Shown here piece after piece: positions 41,361 through 43,242 of a stretch of DNA of 64,000 bases. Source of the stretch: Bordetella pertussis 18323 (lineage in GTDB: Bacteria > Pseudomonadota > Gammaproteobacteria > Burkholderiales > Burkholderiaceae_B). The DNA lies in NCBI RefSeq assembly GCF_000306945.1, contig NC_018518.1:558001-622000 (forward strand). Direction: 5' to 3'. The notes below the pieces were generated by a model. That model did not search any database, had not been told where the DNA came from, and saw only the letters and a list, made by a program, of their open reading frames with translations. The translations under genes were made by a program, and so were the position numbers. How positions within the stretch are numbered: the stretch's first letter is position 1; each line of letters starts with the position of its first letter.

Positions 41361-42311
41361 ATGCTTACCACCTCTGATCCCTTGCCCCATCCCTTGCCCC
41401 ATCCCTTGCTGCACGATGGCGTCGTGGCGGCCGTGGTGCGGCTGTGCGCCGACGCCACCCTCGACTTTCCCGCGCGTTGCGCCCGCCTGGAAGCGGCCAT
41501 CCGCGCCTGCACGCGCGACCAGATCATCGAGCACCTGCAGCACGGCGGCGTGATTTCCGAATGCATCGGCCACGATTCGTCGGAAGAGAAACTGCTGGCC
41601 AAGTACAGCGATGTGCTGCTGGCGTGCGCGCTGGGCGAGCTCGGTTTCCAGGCCCGGGTGCTGGCCGAGCGCAGCGATGCCGCGGACGTCTATGCGGAAT
41701 GCGGCGACCAGCGCATCGTGGGCGATGGCAAGATCTTCCGCCTGAGCCGCACGGCCCTCAATCCCAAGGACTACAAGGTGCCGTCGCTGAAGAAGTGGCG
41801 CCAGGGTGTCGGCTACAGCGCCGATTATTCGGTGCTGCTGGCGCCGTCGTTCCAGTATCCGTTGAGCCGCAGCCAGCTGTACGCGCAGGCGATTGACAAC
41901 AATGTGCTGCTGCTGTCGTTCGAGCAACTGGCATTCCTGGTGCGGCACCACCAGCCCGGCCGCGATTATCGTCCGCTGTGGGAGTACGCAGGCACGCGCG
42001 CAGGCCAGGATACGGCGGCCTGGAAAGAGGCGCGTCAGTACTGGCATGGGCTGAACCAGCTGGTGGCCCGCCTGGCGGGCCAGACCGAGCAGGCGCTGCG
42101 CGACAGCTATGCCGCGCGGCGCCAGCTGCTGCAGCGCCAGTTCGACGACGAGATCGCCCACTGGGACGCCGAGGCGCAGCGCATACGCGGTCTCAGCCGC
42201 GAGCAGGCCATTGCGGAACTGCTGGTCAGCAAGAAGATCCAGGCCCGCGTGGACCTGATGCGCGGGGCGCAGCGCCAGCTGACCCTGCAACTGGACGATG
42301 CGCGCGCCTAG
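41361..42311 (+). CDS. HindIII-family type II restriction endonuclease
   Basis: The 316-residue protein aligns, from memory, over most of its length with HindIII (300 residues, cuts AAGCTT). Matching stretches are DSSEEKLLAKYSDVLLACAL, RSDAADVYAECGDQRIVGDG, KIFRLSRTALNPKDYKV, APSFQYPLSRSQLYAQAI and NVLLLSFEQLAFL. The active-site pair Asp122/Lys124 (VGDGKIF) corresponds to the D-A-K of HindIII. HindIII isoschizomers named BpeI and BbrI have, as I recall, been described from Bordetella. The N terminus has a 12-base tandem repeat coding for PLPH. No methyltransferase is adjacent: a truncated IS1002 begins 17 bases downstream. Confidence 0.87.
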   Translation: MLTTSDPLPHPLPHPLLHDGVVAAVVRLCADATLDFPARCARLEAAIRACTRDQIIEHLQHGGVISECIGHDSSEEKLLAKYSDVLLACALGELGFQARVLAERSDAADVYAECGDQRIVGDGKIFRLSRTALNPKDYKVPSLKKWRQGVGYSADYSVLLAPSFQYPLSRSQLYAQAIDNNVLLLSFEQLAFLVRHHQPGRDYRPLWEYAGTRAGQDTAAWKEARQYWHGLNQLVARLAGQTEQALRDSYAARRQLLQRQFDDEIAHWDAEAQRIRGLSREQAIAELLVSKKIQARVDLMRGAQRQLTLQLDDARA

Positions 42312-42323
42312 GCGCGCCTGGCG

Positions 42324-43242
42324 CTAGTTGTCGATTCTCAATAGGTTATTCACATCTGGGATACGCGTGATGGGTGGCTGATGTCCGAGAGCGGAGTGTG
42401 GCCGATACCAGTTGTAGCGGTCAATGAAGGGCTGCAAGGCAGCCTGTCGTTCGGCTGAGCTCGTGTAGGGCCTGGCGTATGCCCACTCCCGTAAGCAGGT
42501 CTGCACGAGGCGCTCGGCCTTGCCGTTGGTCTTGGGGGTGTAGGGGCGGGTGCGGATGTGACGGATTCCCAGCTCCACGCACACCGCCCGAAAGGTCCTG
42601 GAGACGTAGCCGCTGCCGTTGTCGGTCATCACGCGGTCGATGCGCACGCCCAGACTGGCGTAGTAGGCGGTGGCTTGGCGCAGGAACTCAGCGCACTGAT
42701 CGCCGCCTTCATCGTCGAGGATGCGAGCAAAGGACACGCGCGAGAAGTCATCGATGGCCAGGTGCACAGCGTCCCAGCCAATGCCGCGGTTGCGGTTCTG
42801 GGCCCGATCGCCGGTGATGCGATGGCCCACGCCCCGGATGCGGCCCAGCCGCTTGGTGTCGATGTGCAGCAGCTCGCCTGGGCTGGCGCGTTCATAGCGG
42901 CGCACCGGCGCCGGCGGCTCCAACGAGGCGAGTCGACTCAGGCCGATGCGTTCCATATACCGCGCCACGGTGGCCAGGCTGCGGCCGGCTTCACGCGCGA
43001 TGCGCCACAGCGGCAGACGCTGGCGGCGCTGCTGGGCGAAGTGCTCAACCTGCTCGGGCGCACAGGCCTTCGGGCTGCGGTGCGGGCGAGAACTGCGGTC
43101 AAGCAGGCCGTCCAGACCTTCGCTTCGGAAGCGGGCAAGCCACTTGTAACCGGTGCGCAGGCTCACCCCTGCCGCCTGGCTGGCCTGCCTCATCGTCCAG
43201 TTCTGTTGCATCACCCTGTTAACAAGAAGGGCTCGACCTAGT
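42324..43242 (-). pseudogene. IS1002 transposase, N-terminally truncated
   Basis: The remaining frame begins LGRALLVNRVMQQNWTMRQA, runs through the helix-turn-helix ASQAAGVSLRTGYKWLARF and the DDE core (Asp in LLHIDTKRLG, Asp in VMTDNGSGY, Glu in NGKAERLVQ), and ends LLRIDN. The stop TAG is in the flanking CTAG. The first residues and the IS1002 start codon are lost; the frame is open into the IS481 end, so a fusion product is possible but probably inactive for IS1002. Confidence 0.85.
42329..43242 (-). mobile_element. IS1002, truncated at its 5' end by IS481
   Basis: One terminal repeat is present (TGTCGATTCTCAATAGGTTA at 42329), flanked by GCTAGT. The element runs about 914 bp and then stops at IS481 copy 3. 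Complete IS1002 is about 1040 bp as I recall, so roughly 125 bp, including the other terminal repeat and the transposase start, are missing. They do not reappear beyond IS481. Confidence 0.88.

What the first reader, a model, noticed from the sequence alone, without database searches (positions are those of the whole stretch)
41361..43242. HindIII-family restriction endonuclease gene with no methyltransferase beside it, cut off by IS elements
The protein keeps the HindIII blocks, including the Asp-x-Lys active-site pair, and appears full length (316 versus 300 residues). A type II endonuclease normally has its methyltransferase alongside. Here a lipoprotein gene lies upstream and a truncated IS1002 starts 17 bases downstream, followed by IS481 at a recombination joint. 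The cognate methyltransferase may have been moved or lost with the DNA beyond the joint. If it was lost, the endonuclease should be inactive, or the cell must protect AAGCTT in another way.
Basis: partly seen in the sequence, partly recalled or inferred. Interest (0 to 1): 0.72.

Follow-up and report, generated by a model that had tools for sequence, protein, structure and literature searches.

The report
HindIII-like enzyme with relocated methyltransferase partner
A DNA-cutting enzyme gene that looked as if it had lost its protective partner very probably still has one: insertion elements split the pair and left the partner about 400 kb away, and the genome has almost no copies of the sequence such enzymes cut.

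Summary
Window 41361-42311 (+) is an intact HindIII-family endonuclease (RE_HindIII, 433 bits), followed by a cut IS1002 and an IS481. 'No methyltransferase beside it' holds; 'orphan' very probably does not. An intact 731-aa DUF1156-type methyltransferase lies about 403 kb away (C1:194722-196917). Behind its stop codon is the only unpaired IS1002 5' piece found (searches scored 40 of 406 and 40 of 470 candidates). It fits the window's 3' piece, IS481 polarity included. So the genes were convergent neighbours, stop codons 12 bp apart, until IS1002 and IS481 insertion and IS481 recombination parted them. Two related IMG/VR contigs carry distant homologues in the same convergent order. AAGCTT occurs 20 times in 4.04 Mb, against 173-430 in 14 congeneric genomes lacking the endonuclease. 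In a 400-kb sample it is the most depleted of 3,595 hexamers (1 seen, 38.9 expected), as expected after long exposure to an active AAGCTT endonuclease. The split is in print as a prediction of unclear function (Ershova 2012, B. pertussis). The IS1002 join and AAGCTT depletion were not found in the searches run. Cleavage and methylation of AAGCTT remain inferred.

The parts
41361..42311 (+). HindIII-family type II restriction endonuclease gene, 316 aa (R)
   Evidence: Pfam PF09518 433.2 bits; PDB HindIII E 2.5e-33; 702 proteins at E<=1e-3 among the 7995 candidates scored
42312..42323 (.). 12 bp between the R stop codon and the place where the methyltransferase stop codon (read as CTA) lay before IS1002 inserted (inference)
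   Evidence: window end of R compared with the MTase flank
42323..42328 (.). IS1002 target GCTAGT; the MTase-side flank of the matching half reads GCTAGA (5 of 6 bases equal)
42329..43241 (-). 3' part of IS1002 (transposase on - strand), cut at CCTAG by IS481
   Evidence: 908 bp identical to five intact 1031-bp IS1002 copies of this genome
43243..44285 (-). IS481, recombination joint; its 3' (transposase C-terminal) end faces the IS1002 piece
   Evidence: Pfam IS481 family; flanks CCTAGT / CCTAGG, and the other half of IS1002 is not on its far side

Best explanation
The gene is the endonuclease half of one chromosomal type II restriction-modification system, expected to cut unmethylated AAGCTT. 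Its methyltransferase is the 731-aa DUF1156-type (DPPY, N6-adenine type) protein at C1:194722-196917. Ancestrally the genes were convergent, stop codons 12 bp apart. IS1002 inserted between them, IS481 inserted into that IS1002, and recombination between IS481 copies (simplest: one inversion of about 403 kb) moved the methyltransferase away. Both enzymes act in trans, so the split pair can still work. Shown: endonuclease family, both genes open, matching IS1002 halves, AAGCTT depletion, a convergent homologous pair in two related contigs. Inferred: cleavage of AAGCTT, methylation of AAGCTT, the inversion, present-day activity.
For: (1) Found in the genome: five intact IS1002 copies, one unpaired 5' piece (C1:196919-197038, right behind the MTase stop) and two 3' pieces without a partner, the window's and a chimeric one at C1:3643424-3644264 (40 of 406 and 40 of 470 candidates scored). 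Only the window's piece faces the 3' end of an IS481, as the 5' piece (facing an IS481 5' end) requires; the chimeric piece faces the 5' end. (2) The MTase matches PADLOC type II methyltransferase model PDLC03233 over 1-731 of 731, 1727.6 bits. (3) The two closest of 25 IMG/VR homologues of that MTase (45-46% identity, nearly full length) each have a RE_HindIII gene (131.1 and 129.0 bits) convergent within 50 bp. (4) AAGCTT: 20 in 4.04 Mb, against 173-430 in 14 congeners without a PF09518 match; in a 400-kb sample 1 seen, 38.9 expected, lowest of 3,595 hexamers. (5) Ershova 2012 (PMC3488263, section 17 read): RE and MTase not separated in B. bronchiseptica and B. parapertussis, about 160 kb apart in B. 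pertussis, IS481 near both.
Against: No methylation or cleavage was measured. The MTase is not of the M.HindIII type seen beside 11 of 13 other RE_HindIII genes scanned, so its AAGCTT specificity rests on pairing alone. The two IMG/VR contigs are related to each other (MTases 76%, endonucleases 70% identical), so they count as one lineage; their endonuclease is distant from the window's (24% over 186 residues) and may have another target; the contigs themselves hold 10 and 3 AAGCTT in 40 and 24 kb. The IS481 target copies differ by one base (CCTAGT and CCTAGG), as do the IS1002 target copies. Two congeners also have somewhat few AAGCTT (13 of 35.0 and 13 of 24.1 expected). RE_HindIII does not guarantee depletion: of five other genomes with a match counted, one is as depleted. 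Not all IS1002-like candidates were scored.
Confidence: 0.9

Rival explanations
1. A true orphan: the cognate methyltransferase was lost, and the endonuclease is inactive or not made.
For: No methyltransferase beside it; no PF02086 or PF00145 match in the genome.
Against: Open reading frame with 98% identity to the cluster representative; intact MTase carrying the matching IS1002 half; published adjacency in sister species.
Confidence: 0.04
2. The pair is split but dead: both genes remain readable while restriction activity or expression was lost after the split, and the AAGCTT depletion is a relic of the older, linked system.
For: No expression or activity data here; site scarcity has been seen without the corresponding system (Rusinov 2015, PMC4687349, passages only).
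Against: Both reading frames are open; the MTase cluster representative is 100% identical with 156 member sequences, the endonuclease's 98% with 61.
Confidence: 0.25
3. AAGCTT is scarce for compositional or codon-usage reasons and has nothing to do with the enzyme.
For: High GC (0.678 in the sample); two congeners show mild scarcity (ratios 0.37 and 0.54); AAGCTC/GAGCTT is the next lowest hexamer in the genome (0.26); G043 has only 36 AAGCTT without the gene, but its control pattern is also low (81).
Against: A maximal-order Markov expectation corrects for the inner words and still gives 0.026; the 14 congeners have about 9 to 22 times more sites, two of them at 73% and 77% completeness.
Confidence: 0.05

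Closest known systems
Separated R-M system BpeTORF204P / M.BpeTORF740P of B. pertussis (Ershova 2012, PMC3488263)
   Same: Type II pair in B. pertussis, genes far apart, IS481 near both, not separated in B. bronchiseptica and B. parapertussis (section 17 read). Very probably the same genes; sequences were not compared.
   Different: About 160 kb apart there, about 403 kb here. The words IS1002, AAGCTT, HindIII and DUF1156 are absent from its main text, and it calls the function unclear; its supplements were not read.
HindIII R-M system (PF09518 endonuclease with a PF01555 methyltransferase in tandem, as in L005)
   Same: Endonuclease family, D-x-K active site, blocks conserved along the length.
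   Different: Partner methyltransferase is DUF1156-type, and its inferred arrangement is convergent instead of tandem.
BpeI and BbrI, HindIII isoschizomers from Bordetella (recalled from REBASE)
   Same: Would be the same activity, AAGCTT, in the same genus.
   Different: The link between those activities and this gene is recalled and untested; one search asked for three of five terms together and found no paper.

Membership tests
HindIII-family restriction endonuclease (PF09518) | Match to the family profile over its length | tested here: met
   433.2 bits against cut-off 25.3, profile 2-284 of 285
HindIII-family restriction endonuclease (PF09518) | Catalytic Asp-x-Lys pair | tested here: met
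   D122/K124 align with D109/K111 of chain 2e52 as numbered by phmmer; both invariant in 18 aligned sequences, the window's and 17 chosen homologues. That this pair is catalytic is recalled.
HindIII-family restriction endonuclease (PF09518) | Cuts AAGCTT | not testable with these tools
   Only indirect: AAGCTT 20 times in 4.04 Mb
Type II R-M system | Cognate methyltransferase encoded in the same genome | tested here: inconclusive
   A type II-like 731-aa methyltransferase is present, PDLC03233 1727.6 bits, with the matching IS1002 half; that it is cognate (AAGCTT) is inferred
Type II R-M system | R and M genes linked (usual, not obligatory) | tested here: not met
   about 403 kb apart; linked before IS insertion by inference
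M.HindIII-type system (PF01555 methyltransferase in tandem with R) | PF01555-type methyltransferase beside the endonuclease | tested here: not met
   The 2 PF01555 matches in the genome are a type III Mod and the DUF1156-type protein, neither beside R
Separated R-M system (Ershova 2012) | R and M more than 4 kb apart, with orthologous R-M systems in other genomes | tested here: inconclusive
   Distance tested here and met; orthologous linked Bordetella systems only from the paper; distant homologous pair linked in L118 and L119

The most novel reading that the evidence does not exclude
Near-removal of its own target site from the chromosome is what made this system tolerant of being split: with about 20 AAGCTT sites, several of them in 23S rRNA, tRNA, rpoB and rpsK, a temporary imbalance between unlinked R and M genes is survivable. 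The pair then persists as a functional, unlinked type II R-M system whose gene order is reshuffled between strains by IS481.
Probability: 0.3. Interest if true: 0.55.

Novelty: already known. Interest (0 to 1): 0.42.

Why it matters
It turns an apparent orphan toxic enzyme into a traced, step-by-step split of a restriction-modification system. It offers a natural test of whether type II systems need linked genes, and of how self-site depletion changes that need. It warns that looking only for an 'M.HindIII-like' neighbour misses the partner, because HindIII-type endonucleases occur with at least two types of methyltransferase. If the system is active, it predicts that foreign DNA bearing AAGCTT is restricted in this organism.

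Tried and rejected
Type III Mod/Res as the partner: rejected, the 997-aa Mod has its own neighbour with a ResIII domain. PF02086 and PF00145 methyltransferases: none in the genome. PF02384 and PF07669 were not searched in the genome. The chimeric IS1002 piece at C1:3643424-3644264 as owner of the MTase-side half: rejected on IS481 polarity. Contig lengths shared between the two protein hit lists (5106 and 4253 bp) hinted at linked genes in metagenomes; a few chance equalities are to be expected and the contigs could not be fetched, so this is not used. MTase homologues in plasmids and phages: 183 plasmid records, each under 60% identity, and 4 phage records; their neighbours were not examined. 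A phylum search with the MTase profile gave 5 of 398 genomes at E<=1e-40; the four besides the window's own hold longer, more distant proteins, open frames 903-1226 aa. First viral scans with single proteins found no relative. No solved structure matches the MTase. Papers: searches listed no title on AAGCTT scarcity or HindIII-type restriction in Bordetella; the one hit (PMC5426589, passages) has AAGCTT only in cloning primers. PMC6211672 (passages) shows 623 of 630 AAGCTT methylated (m6A) in Haemophilus parasuis with a hindIIIM gene.

Full report
What is there. The window lies in a 4,043,846-base single-contig genome (C1:558001-622000). From its size and IS elements I take it to be a Bordetella pertussis strain; this is recalled and no call names it. 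Window 41361-42311 (+) encodes 316 aa with one Pfam family, RE_HindIII, at 433.2 bits, and matches solved HindIII at E 2.5e-33. In an alignment of 18 sequences (the window's and 17 chosen from the 120 listed) the invariant positions include D122 and K124, the Asp-x-Lys pair, in the block D-x-K-x-FRLSRT.

Where the methyltransferase is. Three methyltransferase families were searched in the whole genome. PF02086 and PF00145 gave nothing. PF01555 gave two places: a 997-aa type III modification protein, whose neighbour has a ResIII domain, and a match below the cut-off inside a 731-aa ORF at C1:194722-196917. That ORF has DUF1156 (31.9 bits, cut-off 24) and the motifs DMFGGGGT and DPPYYDN; the Asp-Pro-Pro-Tyr residues and two Cys pairs are invariant in an alignment of 20 sequences, its own and 19 chosen relatives. 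It matches PADLOC type II methyltransferase model PDLC03233 end to end at 1727.6 bits. Of 150 related genomes, 14 match it at all, its own included; the best-scoring other hit is 28% identical over residues 107-705.

How they were joined. Directly after the methyltransferase stop codon comes a piece of about 120 bp, the 5' end of IS1002, ending in CCTAGG against an IS481. The window has the 3' part of an IS1002 right behind the endonuclease, ending in CCTAG against an IS481. Copies found: five intact IS1002 of 1031 bp, one lone 5' piece (the methyltransferase's), the window's 3' piece, and one chimeric 3' piece at C1:3643424-3644264. The searches scored 40 of 406 and 40 of 470 first-look candidates, so a further fragment is not strictly excluded; the weakest rows listed are the related but different IS481. 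An IS481 that cuts an IS1002 must face one half with its 5' end and the other with its 3' end. The methyltransferase's half faces an IS481 5' end and the window's half faces a 3' end, so they fit; the chimeric piece faces a 5' end and does not. The IS1002 target flanks read GCTAGT and GCTAGA, 5 of 6 equal; in the five intact copies the two flanks agree in 6, 5, 6, 4 and 5 of 6 bases (my reading). Without the insertions the genes are convergent with 12 bp between stop codons (positions counted). The IS481 on the far side of the methyltransferase has matching GCTAGT flanks, so that side is a plain insertion. The simplest path from the joined to the present state is one inversion of about 403 kb between oppositely oriented IS481 copies. 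This is inference; no unrearranged genome could be fetched here.

Support from other loci. Of 25 IMG/VR loci found with the methyltransferase profile, the two closest (L118 and L119, 46% and 45% identity, nearly full length) both have a convergent gene within 50 bp that is RE_HindIII (131.1 and 129.0 bits). The two contigs resemble each other (methyltransferases 76%, endonucleases 70% identical), so they are one lineage, and their endonuclease is only 24% identical to the window's over 186 residues. They support the pairing and the arrangement, not the target sequence. Of the 13 other RE_HindIII loci scanned (L004, L005, L115-L117, L143-L150), 11 have a methyltransferase similar to that of L005 in tandem by coordinates (strong in 5, 36-60 bits in 6, three of which look nearly identical), L117 has none in 14 kb, and L149 is ambiguous. 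So HindIII-type endonucleases come with at least two kinds of partner, and the Bordetella gene goes with the one that was rarer in this sample.

Site depletion. AAGCTT occurs 20 times in the genome, none of them in the window; the reversed control pattern occurs 726 times. Fourteen congeneric genomes of 3.0-6.2 Mb (two of them 73% and 77% complete) have 173-430 and no RE_HindIII match; of 150 relatives only the window's own genome has one. In 400 kb of evenly spaced sample (20 stretches), AAGCTT is seen once where a maximal-order Markov model expects 38.9, the lowest ratio of 3,595 hexamers with expectation of 10 or more; Poisson P is about 5e-16. Two congeners sampled at 200 kb each give 13 of 35.0 and 13 of 24.1. 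The 20 surviving sites include three in 23S rRNA genes and one in a tRNA, one each inside rpoB and rpsK and one 28 bp before tuf (gene names recalled from the protein starts), and one in the type III Res ORF. Against a simple rule: in a class-wide search 4 of 369 genomes had RE_HindIII over the cut-off, the own genome included. Of five other genomes with a match whose AAGCTT were counted, G885 is as depleted (29, control 1189), while G884 (475, control 235), G372 (650, 461), G331 (157, 209) and G191 (186, 200) are not clearly so. G372's match is short and G191's is in two pieces. G043 has only 36 AAGCTT without the gene, but its control is also low, 81.

What is known. Ershova et al. 2012 (PMC3488263; abstract, passages and section 17 read; supplements not read) list a separated type II system in B. 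pertussis, BpeTORF204P and M.BpeTORF740P, about 160 kb apart. The genes are not separated in B. bronchiseptica and B. parapertussis; IS481 is blamed and function is called unclear. This is very probably the same pair, though the sequences were not compared. The distance here, about 403 kb, differs, as expected if IS481 recombination keeps moving it. The words IS1002, AAGCTT, HindIII and DUF1156 are absent from its main text. Rusinov et al. 2015 (PMC4687349, passages only) report that site avoidance marks long-lived orthodox type II systems and also occurs without the corresponding system; Bordetella, AAGCTT and HindIII are absent from its main text. That BpeI and BbrI are HindIII isoschizomers is recalled only.

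Verdict. The endonuclease is real, and the orphan reading is contradicted by the gene content and the IS1002 halves. The system is a split type II R-M system, already predicted in print. The evidence added here, the matching IS1002 halves, the convergent homologous pair and the near-absence of AAGCTT, makes a functional history very likely and present function likely but unproven.

Noticed in passing
G000:C1:4034694-4034811 (L053:4694-4811): Three of the 20 AAGCTT sites lie within 118 bp, close to a DnaA-box-like TTATCCACA at 4034854; coarse GC skew is compatible with an origin near the contig ends. Possibly oriC.
   Followed up: partly
L062:4211-10291 (G000:C1:3030211-3036291): Type III R-M locus: 997-aa Mod and a 964-aa protein with a ResIII domain; one of the 20 AAGCTT sites (3034851) lies in the latter.
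   Followed up: partly
L006:8221-8649 (G000:C1:194221-194649): 142-aa helix-turn-helix ORF between an IS481 and the methyltransferase, same strand; weak match to R-M control proteins (PDLC03664, 34 bits) among other regulators. Could be a controller gene or an unrelated regulator.
   Followed up: partly
window 41379-41402: Two in-frame 12-bp repeats (PLPH) near the start of the endonuclease; the 329-aa database representative P0001 lacks one of the 4-residue units.
   Followed up: partly
G000:C1:3643424-3644264 (L015): Chimeric element: IS481 end fused to an IS1002 body that is broken by IS481 at the same CCTAGG, in the other orientation.
   Followed up: partly
L005 genome (G885): A MAG titled Defluviitaleaceae with a tandem HindIII-type R-M locus is also almost free of AAGCTT: 29 in 3.1 Mb, control 1189.
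   Followed up: no
L118:9546-11443 and L119:4609-6491: Both convergent R-M pairs in IMG/VR contigs are followed by the same two genes; labels (radical-SAM-like and three-Cys-motif partner) are recalled, not tested.
   Followed up: no
whole genome sample (L033-L052): AAGCTC/GAGCTT is the next most depleted hexamer (14.5 of 54.9 expected), which might hint at relaxed specificity or be codon usage.
   Followed up: no
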